A stretch of DNA of 64,000 nucleotides from Candidatus Palauibacter polyketidifaciens (GTDB taxonomy: Bacteria > Gemmatimonadota > Gemmatimonadetes > Palauibacterales > Palauibacteraceae), in NCBI RefSeq assembly GCF_947581785.1, contig NZ_CANPVO010000047.1:1-64000 (forward strand). The letters are read 5' to 3'. Shown piece after piece: positions 33,964 to 40,096 of this stretch. The notes under the pieces were generated by a model. It saw only the letters and a list, made by a program, of their open reading frames with translations, was not told where the DNA came from and searched no databases. How positions within the stretch are numbered: position 1 is the first letter of the stretch; each line of letters starts with the position of its first letter. The position numbers and the translations under genes are program-made.

Positions 33964-34514
33964 AGCTTCGGCGGCGTGACGCCGGTTTGGCCCTGGTACT
34001 TGCCGGCCTTGTCCGCGTAGCTGACCTCGCAGACCTCGTCGGACTCGAAGAAGAGGACCTGGGCGATCCCCTCGTTCGCGTAGACCCGCGCGGGGAGCGG
34101 GGTCGTGTTCGAGATCTCGAGCGTCACGTGCCCTTCCCACTCCGGCTCGAAGGGGGTGACGTTCACGATGAGGCCGCAGCGGGCGTAGGTGCTCTTCCCC
34201 ACGCAGATGGTGAGGATGCTTCGCGGGATGCGGAAATACTCGATCGAGCGGGCGAGGGCGAAGGAGTTCGGAGGGATGATGCAAACGTCCCCCTGGTACT
34301 CGAGAAAGGAGCGCTCGTCGAACTTCTTGGGGTCGACGACCGGGAAGAGCGCGTTGTGGAAGATCCGGAACTCGTCGGCGACGCGCATGTCGTAGCCGTA
34401 GCTGCTGACGCCGTAGGAGATGACGCCGTCGCGGACCTGGCGGTCGGCGAAGGGTTCGATCATGCCCTGCTCGCGCGCCATGCGCCGGATCCAGCCGTCG
34501 CTCTTGATCGCCAA
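33960..34514 (-). CDS. dcd: dCTP deaminase
   Basis: Deaminates dCTP to dUTP for thymidylate synthesis. The 184 residues carry [16 protein letters not shown] and [20 protein letters not shown]. The [20 protein letters not shown] motif and the catalytic Glu region [13 protein letters not shown] follow. The end [17 protein letters not shown] matches the nucleotide-binding tail. The start is a TTG at 34514 with GAGAGG six bases before it. Bifunctional dUTP-forming variants look similar, so plain deaminase is the default call. Confidence 0.95.
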
Positions 34515-34606
34515 TCGGACCTCTCGGTTATGGGGGACGGCTGCTCGCGGTTCAGTTTATCGCCGCGTCAACCTACGCGGGCGTCAAGGGACGGCGCGCC
34601 GGGGCG

Positions 34607-34996
34607 TCAGGTACGCGCGAGGGCGATCCAGCCGGCCCAGATCCAGGCGGCGATGAGCGCGACGCCTCCGACCGGCGTGATCGCGCCGAGCCAGGCCATG
34701 CCGGACAGCGCGAGGATGTAGAGGGTGCCGCTGAACACCGCTATGCCGCACAGCATCAGAAGCCCGGGCCCCTTCCACCCCGTGTCCGGCCAGCGCGCCG
34801 CCGCGAGGCCGAGGAGGACGAGGCCGAGGGCGTGCAGCATGTGGTAGCGGGCCGCCGTGTCGAAGATCGCGAGTTCGTCCGCCGAGAGGCGACCCTCGAG
34901 CGAGTGCGCGCCGAACGCCCCGGCGGCGACGCCCAGACCGGCGAGCAGGCACCCGGCCGCGAGGAGCCCGCGGTGCGGCGAACCGGCGCCGATCAG
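34607..34996 (-). CDS. DUF423-family small membrane protein, apparent CTG start
   Basis: A 129-residue protein of the DUF423 (YgdD-like) family with four hydrophobic helices. The conserved GAFGAHSLEGRLSADELAIF and the His of TAARYHMLHALGLVLLG are clear, as is GWKGPGLLMLCGIAVFSGTL. Conserved sequence extends at least 35 codons upstream of the first ATG (34840), yet no ATG, GTG or TTG exists in frame there. The best start is a CTG at 34996, which overlaps the upstream TGA as CTGA. Function of the family is unknown. Confidence 0.75.
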   Translation of the reverse strand: MIGAGSPHRGLLAAGCLLAGLGVAAGAFGAHSLEGRLSADELAIFDTAARYHMLHALGLVLLGLAAARWPDTGWKGPGLLMLCGIAVFSGTLYILALSGMAWLGAITPVGGVALIAAWIWAGWIALART

Positions 34997-35235
34997 TCGA
35001 AGAGGGGGGCCGGGGCTGCGCCCGCCCTGCGCGCGGCTTCGCTCGCGACCATCTCCATCACCCGGTCCCAGCGCTCCGGACCGATCTCCCTCAGCGTCGC
35101 CTCCAGGATCGCCGCGAGTTCCCGGCCCTCCTCGCGCCGCATGGGGGCATCGCCGTCTCCGAGTTCCAGCCGCTTGCGCAGCTCCTCTGCGCGCTCGATC
35201 AGGTCCCGGTGCCGGAGTCGTTCCTCATAGCTCAT
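34993..35235 (-). CDS. small charged protein of unknown function
   Basis: An 80-residue protein that I do not recognise. It is rich in Glu and Arg, with an apparently helical first half (YEERLRHRDLIERAEELRKR) and a second helix-like stretch (EGRELAAILEATLREIG), with no Cys and no membrane segment. Its ATG shares one base with the moaA stop (TGATG) and its stop overlaps the CTG of the DUF423 gene. It is co-transcribed with moaA by arrangement, but nothing else ties it to molybdenum cofactor. Confidence 0.65.
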   Translation of the reverse strand: MSYEERLRHRDLIERAEELRKRLELGDGDAPMRREEGRELAAILEATLREIGPERWDRVMEMVASEAARRAGAAPAPLFD

Positions 35236-36215
35236 CAGCCCCCCACCTGGCTCAGCGCCGCGAGCCCTCCGCTCCCGGCCGCCGTGCCCAGCTCCAGGTA
35301 ATGGCGCTTCGGTTTCCCGGCGAGCGCCTCCGCCACCGCAGCCTCGATGCTGCCCGTCTCGCGCAGCGGGCCCTTCATGTCGACTTCGTGGTCGCCGAAC
35401 AGGCAGGTCCGGAGCTTCCCGTCGGCCGTCAGCCGCATGCGGTTGCAGCGTTCGCAGTAGTTGTGGGAGAGGGGCGTGATCACGCCCACGGTCCCCGCGC
35501 CGTCCGGGAAGCGGTAATAGACGGCGGGCCCGTTCCCCCTCGGTCCAGGATCCGGCAGCAGATTCTCGATCGCGCGGATCTTCTCGAGCACTTCGTCGGT
35601 CGAGATGAAGCGGTCGGTGAGGTGGAGGTTCTCTCCCACCGGCATGAGTTCGATGAAGCGCACATGCCACGGCCGCTCGCGCGTGATCTCGGCGAAGTCG
35701 ACGACCTCGTGGTCGTTGAGGCCCCGCATGATGACGCAGTTGATCTTGATCGGAGCGAAGCCCGCCTCCTCGGCGGCGCGGAGGCCTTCCATCGTTTCAT
35801 CGAAGCGCCGCGCGGGCCTTCGGGCGATCTCCTCGAACCCCTCCCGATCGAGCGTGTCGAGGCTCACGTTCACGCGCGCGACGCCCGCTTCCTTGAGGGC
35901 CGCCGCAAAACGCGGCAGGAGGATGGCGTTGGTGGAGAGCGAGATGTCGTCGATGCCCGGGACCGCGGCGATCATGCGCACGAGGTCCGGCAGGTCCTTG
36001 CGGACGAGGGGTTCTCCGCCCGTGATCCGGACCCGTTCCAGCCCGAGCCCGGACATCTGGCGCACGATCTCGGCGATCTCCTCGTACGCCAGCATCTCCG
36101 GCTTGGGGATCCACGCGAGCCCTTCCTCCGGCATGCAGTACGTGCAGCGCAGATTGCACCGGTCTGTGACCGAGATCCGGAGATACCGGATGCGGCGGCC
36201 GAACTGGTCTCTCAT
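35235..36215 (-). CDS. moaA: GTP 3',8-cyclase MoaA
   Basis: Radical SAM enzyme starting molybdenum cofactor synthesis from GTP. The 326 residues carry the SAM cluster motif TDRCNLRCTYCMPEEG at about residues 17-32, GGEPLVRKDL, and the C-terminal second cluster CERCNRMRLTADGKLRTC. The C-terminus ends in Gly-Gly, needed for activity. The gene is preceded by a 300-base gap holding a hairpin and a small peptide gene, and then moaE and moaD. Confidence 0.96.
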   Translation of the reverse strand: MRDQFGRRIRYLRISVTDRCNLRCTYCMPEEGLAWIPKPEMLAYEEIAEIVRQMSGLGLERVRITGGEPLVRKDLPDLVRMIAAVPGIDDISLSTNAILLPRFAAALKEAGVARVNVSLDTLDREGFEEIARRPARRFDETMEGLRAAEEAGFAPIKINCVIMRGLNDHEVVDFAEITRERPWHVRFIELMPVGENLHLTDRFISTDEVLEKIRAIENLLPDPGPRGNGPAVYYRFPDGAGTVGVITPLSHNYCERCNRMRLTADGKLRTCLFGDHEVDMKGPLRETGSIEAAVAEALAGKPKRHYLELGTAAGSGGLAALSQVGG

Positions 36216-36279
36216 GGCACCGTTCGTGAGGGTTGCGCGGGAAGCTCGTCGCCCTCCGGGCCGGGAGCGGCGAGTGGCG

Positions 36280-36311
36280 GGACTCCGCGCAGCCGACGCC
36301 GCGCGGAGTCC
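36280..36311 (-). terminator. 11-bp perfect hairpin downstream of the small peptide gene
   Basis: GGACTCCGCGC (36280-36290) pairs perfectly with GCGCGGAGTCC (36301-36311) across a 10-base loop. It lies about 15 bases after the stop of the 40-residue peptide gene and about 65 bases before moaA. There is no T-run, so it may be a weak or factor-assisted terminator, an attenuator before moaA, or an mRNA stabiliser. Confidence 0.55.
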
Positions 36312-36324
36312 TCGCCCAGGACGG

Positions 36325-36447
36325 CTAGCCGATCAGCGTGACGTCCTCCTGCATCATCATGTTGTCGTCGTCGTCGCCACAGTCTCCGGCAAACGAGACC
36401 GTCGCGATCATGGCAACGACCAGCAGGTTGCGGACCATCTTAAACAT
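36325..36447 (-). CDS. 40-residue secreted-type peptide, unknown function
   Basis: A small open frame with a very strong ribosome-binding site: AGGAGG five bases before the ATG at 36447. The product starts with a basic and hydrophobic signal-like segment (MFKMVRNLLVVAMIATVSFA), followed by GDCGDDDDN, MMM, QEDVTLIG and a TAG stop. A single Cys, four consecutive Asp and three consecutive Met are striking; metal binding or export is only a guess. It lies alone between moaE and moaA with a GC hairpin on either side. No known family was recognised. It could instead be a leader peptide for moaA. Confidence 0.6.
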   Translation of the reverse strand: MFKMVRNLLVVAMIATVSFAGDCGDDDDNMMMQEDVTLIG

Positions 36448-36476
36448 GGCTTCCTCCTCGATTTGGGCGCCCGCGT

Positions 36477-36495
36477 CCGGGGCCGGCTGCCCCGG
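36477..36495 (-). terminator. GC-rich hairpin after moaE
   Basis: CCGGGGC (36477-36483) pairs with GCCCCGG (36489-36495) around a five-base loop. It lies about 30 bases past the moaE stop and just before the ribosome-binding site of the small peptide gene. No T-run follows, so termination is uncertain. Confidence 0.4.
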
Positions 36496-36525
36496 AATCC
36501 ATCGACCGCCCTTGACCAGGCATCC

Positions 36526-37017
36526 CTATCCGAACCGTGAACCGCCGGTTGAAGCCCCCGCTTCCGGCGTCGGGGCTCCCACCCAATGCGATTCGCCATC
36601 CTCGTAGTGCTCGTGCTTCCAGATCGGCAGTCTGACCTTGATCGTTTCGATAATCCAGCGTGAAGCCCGGTAGCCGTCGTCGCGGTGTGCCGACGTGACC
36701 GCGATCGCCACACTGACCTCGCCCAGCGCGAGGTCGCCCACGCGGTGGGCCGCGGCGATGGAACCCACGTCGAACTGCTCCAGCGCCTCGAGACAGATGG
36801 CGGACAACTCCCCTTCCGCCATCTCCCCGTACGCCTCGTACGTGAGGCGCGACACCCGGCGACCGCGGTTCGTGCGGCGAACCCGCCCCTGAAAGAAGAG
36901 CAGCGCACCGTCCTCCCCGGACCCGACCTCCCCTACAATATCCTCGAATCGCGCGAAGTCGTCCAGACTCTCGCGGGTGATCCACGTCCGGACGCGGTCG
37001 TCCGGTCCCTGCGACAT
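36526..37017 (-). CDS. moaE: molybdopterin synthase catalytic subunit MoaE
   Basis: Large subunit of molybdopterin synthase, adding two sulfurs to cyclic pyranopterin. The 163 residues show GALLFFQGRVRRTNRGRRVS, the SAHRDDGYRASRWIIETIK helix and the active-site KVRLPIWKHEHYEDGESHWV. It follows moaD by four bases. A Gly/Ser/Ala-rich tail follows the core. Confidence 0.95.
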   Translation of the reverse strand: MSQGPDDRVRTWITRESLDDFARFEDIVGEVGSGEDGALLFFQGRVRRTNRGRRVSRLTYEAYGEMAEGELSAICLEALEQFDVGSIAAAHRVGDLALGEVSVAIAVTSAHRDDGYRASRWIIETIKVRLPIWKHEHYEDGESHWVGAPTPEAGASTGGSRFG

Positions 37018-37021
37018 CGGC

Positions 37022-37276
37022 TCAGCCCCCCGCCACGGGAGGGATAAGCGCGACCTCGTCTCCGTCGGACAGGGTCGTGCCGGCCTCCGCGTAGCTCTGG
37101 TTTACGGCGACGACGACGCTCTCCGGGAGCCAGTCGAGCCCGCCGGGCCCGCGCAGGCTGTTGACGAGGTCCGCCACTGTGCTGTCCGCCGCGAGTTCCG
37201 CCGACCCCTCCCTGCGCGCGGCGAGTTCGCCGTACACGCCGAAGAAGAGGGTGCGAACCGAGATCCGGTCCGTCAT
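37022..37276 (-). CDS. moaD: molybdopterin synthase sulfur carrier subunit MoaD
   Basis: Ubiquitin-like sulfur carrier of 84 residues ending in the required Gly-Gly (ALIPPVAGG), which is thiocarboxylated. The N-terminal VRTLFFGVYGELA is the first beta strand and helix. VVVAVNQSYAEAGTTLSDGD follows the helix. Its ATG overlaps the stop of an upstream 91-residue gene. Confidence 0.93.
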   Translation of the reverse strand: MTDRISVRTLFFGVYGELAARREGSAELAADSTVADLVNSLRGPGGLDWLPESVVVAVNQSYAEAGTTLSDGDEVALIPPVAGG

Positions 37277-37548
37277 GGGCTCGCGCTCGCGAGTTGGAGG
37301 TGGGCGAGGAGCCGCGGCACGATCCCCTCCTCGCGCAGCGTCGTCACCCGCACCCGCGTCCCATCGCTCCCCTCGGGGTCCGGGAAGGCCGCAACGGAGA
37401 GGTTGCCCCTGAAGGTGCAGAAGGCGATGTGGGTGTCGCTCTCGGTATCGACCCAGGCGTCGACCATCCGGTCGTCCCCGAGGAAGAAATCCCGCGTGGC
37501 GGCCAACACGTCCGCCGGGTCCAGCGCGCTTGCCGTCTCTGTCGTCAT
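37273..37548 (-). CDS. unknown 91-residue protein upstream of moaD
   Basis: I do not recognise this protein. It has 91 residues with beta-rich segments (THIAFCTFRGNLSVAAF, then TRVRVTTLREEGIVPRLLAH) and no membrane segment. Its stop overlaps the moaD start as ATGA, so translation is coupled and it probably belongs to the moa operon as first gene. It may be a small partner or regulator of cofactor synthesis; that is inference from position alone. The divergent aminotransferase gene starts about 100 bases away. Confidence 0.7.
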   Translation of the reverse strand: MTTETASALDPADVLAATRDFFLGDDRMVDAWVDTESDTHIAFCTFRGNLSVAAFPDPEGSDGTRVRVTTLREEGIVPRLLAHLQLASASP

Positions 37549-37654
37549 CTCTCTGTCATCATCGTCTTTCCGCGCGTACCATCCAGCAGCCGAAGATAGG
37601 GGCGCAGGAGCCCTCTCTCAATCCGACCCACCCCTTCGACAAGAGTGCGCGACC

Positions 37655-38827
37655 GTGCCCCTTACGCAGTTTTCCCCGAACGTCGCCCGGCTCGAGGCAT
37701 CGGCGACGCTGGTGCTCGCCGCCCGGGCCCGGAAGCTGAGGGCGGCGGGCGTTCCGGTCGTGGACCTTTCGGCCGGCGAACCGCAGTACCCCGCGCCAGC
37801 CTTCGCAGCCCGCGCCGGCATTCGGTCGGTCGAGGAGGGGAAGACGGGATATCCCCCGACGTCGGGGCTGCCGGAACTGCGCGAGGCGATCGCGCGCTAT
37901 CTGTGCGAGACGACGGCCGCCGAGGCGGTGGATCCGGGCTCCGTGATCGTGAGCGCGGGCGTGAAGCAGTCGCTGTTCAACTGCTGCTATGCCCTCTTCG
38001 GCGCGGGCGATGAGGTGCTCGTGCCTTCCCCCTACTGGCCGAGCTATACGACGATCGTCCGGCTCGCGGGGGCGGAGCCGGTCATCGTGGAGACGACGTG
38101 GGACGGCGGGTTCGTGCCGACGGTCGAGGATCTCGAGGCGGCCCGCACGGCGCGGACCGGGGGGCTCATGCTCAACAGCCCGGGGAACCCGACCGGCGCC
38201 GTCATCCCGTCCGATCTCCTGCGCGAGATCCTGGCGTGGGCGGAGCAGCACGGGATCTGGGTGCTCTCCGACGAGATCTACCGGCGGCTCGCCTTTGGAG
38301 CCCCGGCGCCGTCGGTGTTCGAAGTCGCGGAGCGCGGGGAGAGGACGATCCTGCTCGACGGCGTGTCGAAGGCGTTCTGCATGCCGGGGTTCCGGATCGG
38401 GTACGCCGTGGGGCCGTCCGACGTCGTCCGGAAGATGGCGGACCTGCAGGGACAGACGACCTCCGGGGCCGTCGGCCCCTCCCAGCACGCCGCCGCCGCC
38501 GCGCTCGGAAAGAGCGCCGACCGGGAGGCGTTCGTCGAGGACCTCCTGTCCAGGCTCGCCGGACTCAGGGAGATGGGGCTCTCGAGGTTCGCGGAGATCG
38601 ACGGGATCGACGCCTTCCCGCCCGACGGCGCCCTGTACTTCTACGCGCGGATCGGCCATGGCGGGGCCGCGTCGCTCGATGTCGCGGAGCGGCTGCTCGC
38701 CGACGCGCAGGTGGCGTGCATGCCGGGCGAGCCGTTCGGCTCTCCGGGGCACCTGCGCTTCAACTTCGCGGTGGAGCGGGAAGTCCTGGAGGAGGGACTG
38801 GAGCGGATCGCCGGCTTCTTCGGCTGA
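37655..38827 (+). CDS. pyridoxal phosphate-dependent aminotransferase, class I/II (aspartate aminotransferase-like)
   Basis: A 390-residue fold type I aminotransferase. Motifs are the Asn in NSPGNPTGAV near residue 180, LSDEIYRRLAFG, and the PLP lysine in LDGVSKAFCMPGFRIGYAVG at about residue 240. The C-terminal Arg is in HLRFNFAVEREVLEEGLERI. The N-terminal VDLSAGEPQYPAP is typical for the aspartate aminotransferase subgroup of bacteria. The GTG at 37655 is the best start though its ribosome-binding site is weak. Substrate is probably an amino acid such as aspartate, but this cannot be fixed from sequence. Confidence 0.9.
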   Translation: MPLTQFSPNVARLEASATLVLAARARKLRAAGVPVVDLSAGEPQYPAPAFAARAGIRSVEEGKTGYPPTSGLPELREAIARYLCETTAAEAVDPGSVIVSAGVKQSLFNCCYALFGAGDEVLVPSPYWPSYTTIVRLAGAEPVIVETTWDGGFVPTVEDLEAARTARTGGLMLNSPGNPTGAVIPSDLLREILAWAEQHGIWVLSDEIYRRLAFGAPAPSVFEVAERGERTILLDGVSKAFCMPGFRIGYAVGPSDVVRKMADLQGQTTSGAVGPSQHAAAAALGKSADREAFVEDLLSRLAGLREMGLSRFAEIDGIDAFPPDGALYFYARIGHGGAASLDVAERLLADAQVACMPGEPFGSPGHLRFNFAVEREVLEEGLERIAGFFG

Positions 38828-38842
38828 CCCGCCCGCCCCGGC

Positions 38843-39133
38843 TCACTCGAGGCTCGACGCCACCTCGTCCCGCAGCAGGCGCGAGGGCTTGAAGACGGGC
38901 ACCTTCCTCTGCGGCACGCGGACCGGATCTCCCGTTCGCGGGTTGCGCGCCATGCGGGTCCGGCGCTCCCGAACCTTGAAGGTGCCGAAGCCGCGAATCT
39001 CGATGTGGTTGCCTTGCACGACGGCTCCCTTGACCGCGTTCAGAAACGCGTTGACCACCGCTGCACAGTCCCTCTTGGTCACGCCGGGGCCGATGGCCTC
39101 GTGGACCTGTTCGATGAGATCCGCCTTCGTCAT
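38843..39133 (-). CDS. HU/IHF-family DNA-binding protein
   Basis: A 96-residue nucleoid-associated protein. It begins MTKADLIEQVHEAIGPGVTK, has the core IEIRGFGTFKVRERRTRMAR and the intercalating-arm stretch ARNPRTGDPVRVPQRKVPVF with the conserved Pro. A G-rich ribosome-binding site (GGAGGAGAGGGAG) precedes the ATG. Whether it acts as HU or an IHF subunit cannot be told. Confidence 0.94.
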   Translation of the reverse strand: MTKADLIEQVHEAIGPGVTKRDCAAVVNAFLNAVKGAVVQGNHIEIRGFGTFKVRERRTRMARNPRTGDPVRVPQRKVPVFKPSRLLRDEVASSLE

Positions 39134-39196
39134 TCTCCCTCTCCTCCGAGCGTTTACGATCCTGTGTATTGGCGTGCCGCTCCGGGACGGGAGCGG

Positions 39197-40096
39197 CTAT
39201 CTCAGTTCAAAGAGGAGCCTCGGCGCGCCTGGACGCAGCGGCGCCAGCGACCCGAGCCACGTCCGCGCGTCGCCGATGCTCAGCCCGCCGAGAATGTCGA
39301 ACAGACCGATGGTCGGCTCGCGCGGCCGCACGATCGTCGGATCCGTTCCCAGATCCGCCATCCGACCGGCGAGCGAGATCGTCTCGGACAGCGTCATCAG
39401 GCCGTCGACGAGCCCGAGTTCGTTCGCCTGCCGGCCCGAAAAGATGCGGCCGTCCGCCAGCCCGCGGACGGTCTCCCGATCCAGGTTCCGGTTCTCGGAC
39501 ACGACCTCGACGAACTGCTCGTGTACATCTCCCACGACGTCTTCGAGGATCTCGCGGCCCTCGGGCGAAAGGGAGCGGCCCAGGCCGCCGAGATCCTTGT
39601 GTTCGCCGCTCGCCACGACTTCCCAGTCGACCCCGACCTTGCGGAAGAGTTCCTCGGCGTTGGGGAACTCCATGATGACGCCGATGGACCCGGTCATCGT
39701 GCCGGGCAGCGCGTACACGCTGTCGGCCCCGACCGCGGCGTAGTATCCGCCGGAGGCCCCCACATCGCCCATCCAGGCGAGGACGGGCCGGTCGTCTTCG
39801 TCCCGCAACTCGCGGATGGCTTCGAAGATGCTCTGCGAGGCCCCCACCGTGCCGCCGGGGGACTCGATCTCGATCACGAACGCGCGCACGCCGGGGTCTT
39901 CGCGAAAGCCTTCGAGGGCCTAGGTGAACGCCGCTTCATCCTCGATCACGCCGCGCAACGGGACGACCGCGACGCGTCCGCCCGAGAGAAACGACGTACT
40001 CCCCACCGTCCACCAGATGGAGAGGATCGCACCCACGCCGAAGAGGCCCAGCAGCGCCAGTAAGGCGATCACCGTGTTTCGCTTGTCGTAGGTCAC
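39197..40096 (-). pseudogene. sppA: signal peptide peptidase SppA, interrupted by an in-frame TAG
   Basis: A 36K-type SppA serine protease of about 299 codons, starting GTG at 40096 with a membrane anchor (VIALLALLGLFGVGAILSI) and a first strand GGRVAVVPLRGVIEDEAAFT. Codon 59 (39922-39920) is TAG, in frame, followed at once by conserved sequence (ALEGFREDPGVRAFVIEIES). The catalytic Ser115 in GDVGASGGYY and Lys167 in SGEHKDLG are intact downstream. A CAG-to-TAG change or a sequencing error would explain it. A GTG at 39889 could restart translation, but without the anchor. SppA normally cleaves leftover signal peptides in the membrane. Confidence 0.8.

What the first reader, a model, noticed from the sequence alone, without database searches (positions are those of the whole stretch)
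36280..36495. Solitary 40-residue exported-type peptide between moaE and moaA, hairpins on both sides
A 123-base frame has the best ribosome-binding site seen in the region (AGGAGG, five bases from ATG), a signal-like N-terminus and the odd composition GDCGDDDDN plus MMM. GC hairpins lie before (36477-36495) and after (36280-36311) it. It could be a secreted metal-binding peptide, a leader tied to moaA expression, or a small toxin-like peptide. No known family fits.
Basis: partly seen in the sequence, partly recalled or inferred. Interest (0 to 1): 0.6.

Follow-up and report, generated by a model that had tools for sequence, protein, structure and literature searches.

The report
Conserved exported microprotein in molybdenum-cofactor operon
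A 40-amino-acid peptide gene between two molybdenum-cofactor genes of a sponge-associated bacterium (Candidatus Palauibacter) is real: its sequence has been kept nearly unchanged in 11 related species, it carries an export signal, it occurs nowhere else we could search, and its job is unknown.

Summary
The 40-codon frame (36325-36447, minus strand), its strong ribosome-binding site and both GC hairpins are at the stated places. It is a genuine gene. It lies between moaE and moaA in 11 of 16 species-level genomes of the genus (Candidatus Palauibacter, Gemmatimonadota), at 92-100% identity. In codons 3-34, 12 substitutions are seen and none changes the protein (0 of 20,000 permutations as extreme). 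It is single copy and absent from the other class genomes, plasmids, phages and viral contigs searched. Outgroups have moaE and moaA abutting or overlapping, so the peptide with its hairpins is a lineage-specific addition to an old operon. The first 20 residues look like a Sec signal with an SFA|GDC cleavage site; the lipobox is not met. Both hairpins are kept, with a few compensatory changes; the 3' one has no T-run, and the moaA start lacks a Shine-Dalgarno site. Most likely this is a lineage-specific, exported, acidic Cys/Met microprotein made with the cofactor operon. A regulatory leader or a TimP-like toxin is not excluded. Its exact function is unknown. Genus-restricted exported microproteins are common, so interest is moderate.

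The parts
36325..36447 (-). 40-codon microprotein gene (stop included)
   Evidence: ORF; 92-100% identical in 11 genus species; 12 synonymous and 0 nonsynonymous change types in codons 3-34
36388..36447 (-). codons 1-20: Sec-type signal region, +2 n-region, 13-residue hydrophobic core, SFA|GDC signal peptidase I-type site
   Evidence: residue rules; residues 3-20 invariant; SignalP not available
36346..36387 (-). codons 21-34: invariant acidic Cys/Met segment GDCGDDDDNMMMQE
   Evidence: invariant in 11 species with 6 synonymous changes
36328..36345 (-). codons 35-40: variable C-terminal tail
   Evidence: DEG/AIV/ALV/GS variation
36453..36458 (-). Shine-Dalgarno AGGAGG
   Evidence: GAGGAGG invariant in 11 species; about -11.3 kcal/mol to anti-SD
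36476..36496 (-). upstream hairpin (8 bp), core of a predicted longer stem 36465-36511
   Evidence: 97.7% of cells paired, 2 pairs with two-sided changes; RNAalifold consensus
36280..36311 (-). downstream hairpin (14 bp), no T-run, 13 nt after the stop codon
   Evidence: 98.6% of cells paired in 10 species, 1 pair with two-sided changes; single copy in genome
36216..36279 (-). spacer before moaA; in G015 the homologous bases are the in-frame C-terminal tail of moaE ending in an ATGA overlap with moaA
   Evidence: frameshifted in G007, G006, G001; mostly lost in G002, G009, G010
35235..36215 (-). moaA, GTP 3',8-cyclase; no Shine-Dalgarno before its ATG
   Evidence: TIGR02666 375 bits; -4.9 kcal/mol to anti-SD
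36526..37017 (-). moaE
   Evidence: PF02391
37022..37276 (-). moaD
   Evidence: PF02597 / TIGR01682
37273..37548 (-). 91-aa unnamed first gene of the operon
   Evidence: conserved upstream of moaD across the family and in one genome of another family of the order; no Pfam or NCBIfam match
37593..37621 (-). promoter-like TTGAGA-17-TATCTT upstream of the operon
   Evidence: only promoter-like match in 35000-38000

Best explanation
A genuine, lineage-specific microprotein gene that was added, together with flanking hairpins, between moaE and moaA of an older contiguous molybdenum-cofactor operon in one clade of Candidatus Palauibacter. It is most likely transcribed with the operon from the promoter before the 91-aa gene and translated from its own strong ribosome-binding site. 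Residues 1-20 direct it through the Sec system. It is then either cleaved after Ala20, giving a 20-residue acidic peptide with one Cys and three Met, or it stays anchored in the membrane. It acts in trans in the cell envelope through the invariant segment GDCGDDDDNMMMQE, possibly by binding a metal ion or a partner protein. Shown: reality of the gene, purifying selection on the amino-acid sequence, synteny, lineage restriction, an export-type N-terminus by rule, failure of the lipobox. Inferred: co-transcription, export, cleavage, action in trans. Guessed: metal or partner binding.
For: 11 of 16 genus species carry it at 92-100% identity, always between moaE and moaA. Codons 3-34 show 12 change types, 0 nonsynonymous, 5.5 expected, 0 of 20,000 permutations as low. 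The signal part and the acidic part have 6 synonymous changes each and no amino-acid change. The coding frame has the fewest nonsynonymous changes of the six frames (8/22 against 11-20/22). The RBS is near-invariant and strong. n/h/c signal architecture with SFA|GDC; lipobox false in all variants. The nearest weak matches elsewhere are mostly the N-termini of exported proteins: a 170-aa MAGECDDDDD... protein in G046 and lipoproteins with ACGDDDD.
Against: No transcript, ribosome or mass-spectrometry data. SignalP was not available, so export rests on residue rules. No other copy or distant homologue exists to suggest a function. Third codon positions are also slower (89% identity) than in moaA (80%), so part of the low divergence may reflect a constraint on the RNA. 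Signal regions of two ordinary exported proteins in the window are far less conserved (0.42-0.55), one lipoprotein 0.92, which could mean the N-terminus does more than target.
Confidence: 0.6

Rival explanations
1. Cis-acting leader: translation of the peptide, for example ribosome position at MMM or DDDD or nascent-chain stalling on the hydrophobic N-terminus, controls the hairpin after the stop codon and thereby transcription or translation of moaA.
For: A strong hairpin starts 13 nt after the stop and keeps pairing in 10 species with a compensatory change. moaA has no Shine-Dalgarno and no overlapping upstream gene any more. A conserved 5' structure precedes the RBS. Met codons cannot vary, so codon sensing at MMM is not excluded.
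Against: The amino-acid sequence of all 32 residues from 3 to 34 is kept, more than an attenuator needs. There is no T-run after the hairpin and no terminator-like site there. No Rfam match, Moco RNA included. No alternative antiterminator pairing was established.
Confidence: 0.17
2. Ribosome-loading cistron: the peptide supplies ribosomes to moaA by hairpin-bridged re-initiation, replacing the moaE-moaA ATGA overlap that the insertion broke.
For: Outgroups and G015 have overlapping or abutting moaE-moaA. In the 11 genomes moaA lacks a Shine-Dalgarno while the peptide has a very strong one. The hairpins shorten the physical distance from stop to start.
Against: Does not explain amino-acid conservation of codons 3-34. 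The stop-to-ATG distance is about 110 nt in most genomes. Other genes of this genome also start without a clear Shine-Dalgarno.
Confidence: 0.08
3. TimP-like toxic or membrane-active small protein kept under RNA control.
For: Similar size, a 20-residue Sec signal with a predicted cleavage site after Ala20, N-terminus more conserved than C-terminus, as reported for TimP (PMC7667032). Structured 5' leader next to the RBS.
Against: Encoded within a housekeeping operon, no antitoxin or antisense RNA identified, single copy, no PADLOC or credible PHROGs match. Tail strongly acidic.
Confidence: 0.1
4. Spurious or decaying ORF: the signal-peptide stub of a lost exported protein.
For: The N-terminus looks like the export signal plus acidic linker of larger Gemmatimonadota exported proteins.
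Against: Strong purifying selection and a fixed stop codon in all 11 species.
Confidence: 0.03

Closest known systems
TimP (RyfA), 38-aa small membrane protein of Salmonella (PMC7667032)
   Same: Length, Sec signal over residues 1-20, predicted signal peptidase I site after Ala20, signal part more conserved than tail.
   Different: Position -3 is Ser here (Leu in TimP, thought to block cleavage); acidic Cys/Met tail; sits in a cofactor operon; no divergent antisense sRNA identified; toxicity untested; direct sequence comparison not made.
Lineage-specific intergenic microproteins under purifying selection (Fesenko et al., PMC11188072; GMSC catalogue, PMC11364881)
   Same: Intergenic, 15-70 codons, purifying selection, co-directed with both neighbours, genus-restricted, part of them predicted secreted.
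   Different: Here the insertion point in an older contiguous operon can be read, and hairpins are present with it. Conservation in codons 3-34 is complete.
Acidic-linker exported proteins and lipoproteins of Gemmatimonadota (for example G046 C118 ORF, MAGECDDDDDPTG...)
   Same: Signal followed by Cys and an Asp run.
   Different: They carry a mature domain of 100 or more residues and mostly a true lipobox; this gene ends after 40 codons and fails the lipobox.

Membership tests
Bacterial lipoprotein | Lipobox with G/A/S at -1 before the lipidated Cys | tested here: not met
   AGD before Cys23 in all seven protein variants
Sec-exported peptide (signal peptidase I type) | Positive n-region, hydrophobic core, small residues at -3 and -1 | tested here: met
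   +2 n-region, mean hydropathy 2.56 over residues 8-20, SFA|GDC. Rule-based only.
Sec-exported peptide (signal peptidase I type) | Actual export and cleavage | not testable with these tools
   needs expression or proteomics
Microprotein under purifying selection | Fewer nonsynonymous changes than expected | tested here: met
   0 against 5.5 expected in codons 3-34; 0 of 20,000 permutations
TimP/TimR-type toxin-sRNA pair | Divergent sRNA complementary to the toxin mRNA | not tested
   No credible Rfam match in 34000-39500; no transcript data and no dedicated search
TimP/TimR-type toxin-sRNA pair | Toxic on overexpression, inner-membrane localisation | not testable with these tools
   experiment needed
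Moco riboswitch or other known cis-regulatory RNA | Match to the family covariance model | tested here: not met
   no credible Rfam match
Intrinsic terminator | GC stem followed by a T-run | tested here: not met
   stem present, tail CGCCACTC, no T-run; scan finds no site there
RiPP precursor matured by a neighbouring radical SAM enzyme | Neighbouring maturase of a peptide-modifying family | tested here: not met
   the radical SAM neighbour is MoaA itself, TIGR02666 above cut-off

The most novel reading that the evidence does not exclude
A lineage-specific gene for an exported Cys/Asp/Met peptide has become a fixed part of a cofactor-biosynthesis operon and either handles a metal in the envelope for molybdoenzyme maturation or couples moaA expression to peptide translation through its hairpins.
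Probability: 0.15. Interest if true: 0.7.

Novelty: new member of a known kind. Interest (0 to 1): 0.4.

Why it matters
It is a small clear case of a lineage-specific gene added to an ancient operon: gene, RBS and hairpins are present in 11 species, while a close relative and the outgroups show moaE and moaA abutting or overlapping. It is missing from the family libraries searched. If the peptide affects molybdenum-cofactor production or handles metal, it would be a new layer in a pathway thought to be well known.

Tried and rejected
Lipoprotein: lipobox not met. Known families: Pfam, NCBIfam, PADLOC, PHROGs and PDB sequences gave nothing credible. Known RNA element: nothing in Rfam. Mobile or phage origin: no match in viral contigs, plasmids or phages, and no close copy of the block DNA elsewhere in the genus (only short weak matches, not followed up). 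Dispersed hairpin repeat: single copy in the genome. Intrinsic terminator: no T-run. Placing G015: 8 genes did not resolve it. In a protein tree of 7,851 aligned residues the split of G015 plus the distant outgroup G012 from the seven peptide-bearing genomes has bootstrap 99, which makes G015 sister to them; but codon positions 1+2 leave it open, and a constrained tree is no worse or better. So one insertion in the ancestor of the 11 is favoured, and loss in G015 is not excluded. Distant-looking hits of the peptide search (L012-L030) are N-termini of longer exported proteins or unrelated frames.

Full report
The observation. The minus strand at 36447-36325 reads CGAGGAGGAAGCC ATG ... TAG and encodes MFKMVRNLLVVAMIATVSFAGDCGDDDDNMMMQEDVTLIG. 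AGGAGG stands five bases before ATG. Its pairing energy with the anti-SD, -11.3 kcal/mol, is near the 1% tail of random 18-base stretches of the window and better than all neighbouring starts tested. Inverted repeats lie at 36476-36496 and 36280-36311. Neighbours are moaE (PF02391), moaD (PF02597) and moaA (TIGR02666, 375 bits) on the same strand. A 40-codon ORF is in itself common here, so the question is conservation.

Organism. Matching contigs of the genome collection are titled Candidatus Palauibacter rhopaloidicola, Ca. Palauibacter denitrificans and Gemmatimonadales/Gemmatimonadetes MAGs. The window therefore belongs to this Gemmatimonadota genus (order Palauibacterales, PMC10469786).

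Is it a gene? The peptide is found in 11 of 16 species-level genomes of the genus at 92-100% identity, in every case after moaE and before moaA; for G011 the contig ends within the following hairpin. A class-wide profile search of 394 genomes adds only a second genome of the window's own species; the other hits are weak. Across the 11 species, codons 3-34 hold 12 change types and none alters an amino acid, where 5.5 would be expected; 0 of 20,000 permutations did as well. Codons 3-20 (signal part) and 21-34 (acidic part) have six synonymous changes each. Only residue 2 (F/L) and four of the last six residues vary. The stop codon is fixed, GAGGAGG is invariant, and the sequence before the RBS is much more variable (81% mean identity against 96% for codons 1-34). 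In the other five reading frames 11-20 of the 22 changes would be nonsynonymous, against 8 in the proposed frame. I take the gene as shown.

Where it came from. In the outgroups examined (G005 and G012 of the same genus, other genera of the family) moaE runs up to or into moaA with no room for the peptide. In G015, a close relative (moaA 95% identical) without the peptide, the moaE frame reads on through PPLAASGPEGGELPAQPPLSVP and ends in an ATGA overlap with moaA. The homologous bases still stand between the downstream hairpin and moaA in the window (PPLAAPGPEGDELPAQPSRTVP*), but are frameshifted in G007, G006 and G001 and mostly lost in G002, G009 and G010. So the peptide with RBS and hairpins is an addition at the 3' end of moaE. 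In a protein tree of 7,851 aligned residues the split of G015 plus the outgroup G012 from the seven peptide-bearing genomes has bootstrap 99, which places G015 as their sister. Codon positions 1+2 do not resolve it, and the only outgroup there is distant. Loss in G015 is therefore not excluded. No close copy of the block was found elsewhere in the genus, in plasmids, phages or viral contigs, so its source is unknown; birth in place is possible.

What it encodes. Charge +2 at the N-terminus, 13 hydrophobic residues, then SFA|GDC fit a Sec signal with signal peptidase I cleavage; the lipobox rule fails at -1 (Asp) in all variants. The product would be the 20-mer GDCGDDDDNMMMQEDVTLIG (net charge -7), or a membrane-anchored form if uncleaved. 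The best weak matches elsewhere are mostly N-termini of exported proteins with the same layout of signal, Cys and Asp run but a full mature domain. Two ordinary exported proteins of the window's genome conserve their signal regions far less (0.42 and 0.55 identity) than the rest; one lipoprotein conserves it at 0.92. Complete identity over residues 3-24 in 11 species is thus at the high end, on a very small control set.

The hairpins. The downstream stem pairs in 98.6% of cells over 10 species, with one pair changed AU to GC on both sides and several G-U steps. The upstream stem pairs in 97.7% over 11 species with two pairs changed on both sides and is the core of a longer predicted stem that reaches the RBS region. 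Against shuffles the covariation is modest (24/500 and 16/500 shuffles reach the observed score). The region folds better than shuffled sequence (z -3.45). There is no T-run, no terminator-like site and no Rfam match. moaA lacks a Shine-Dalgarno and no longer overlaps an upstream gene, which leaves room for the two cis models listed as rivals.

Comparison with known things. TimP of Salmonella (38 aa, Sec signal 1-20, predicted cut after Ala20, conserved N-terminus; PMC7667032) is the nearest in architecture. Whether this peptide is toxic or has an antisense RNA is not known, so it is not filed there. [quoted passage not shown] This gene is therefore a well-supported new member of a known kind, with an unusually clear insertion history.

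Verdict. Gene: shown. Export: likely, by rule. Action in trans: inferred from amino-acid conservation. Metal binding: a guess from composition. Interest 0.4.

Noticed in passing
window 37273-37548 (-): A 91-aa protein with no Pfam or NCBIfam match is the conserved first gene of the moa operon across the family and in one genome of another family of the order.
   Followed up: partly
L083 (G011 C66) 1-115 and end of L082 (G011 C18): One G011 contig ends in a run of C exactly in the 3' hairpin; another joins moaE to moaA without the peptide at a GGAG(C/T)CCCGCC repeat. Either a peptide-less variant or an assembly artefact at the hairpin.
   Followed up: partly
L011 (G006), just after the peptide stop: Extra perfect 9-bp inverted repeat CTAGTGTCG-TAT-CGACACTAG absent from the other species.
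   Followed up: no
L034, L040, L003 (G009, G002, G010) between hairpin and moaA: About 45 bases of spacer are missing, so the hairpin lies about 20 nt from the moaA start.
   Followed up: no
L112 (G015 C34 near 146478): Unrelated short exported-looking Cys-rich ORF with ARAGDCDDDCPFDGWGW....
   Followed up: no
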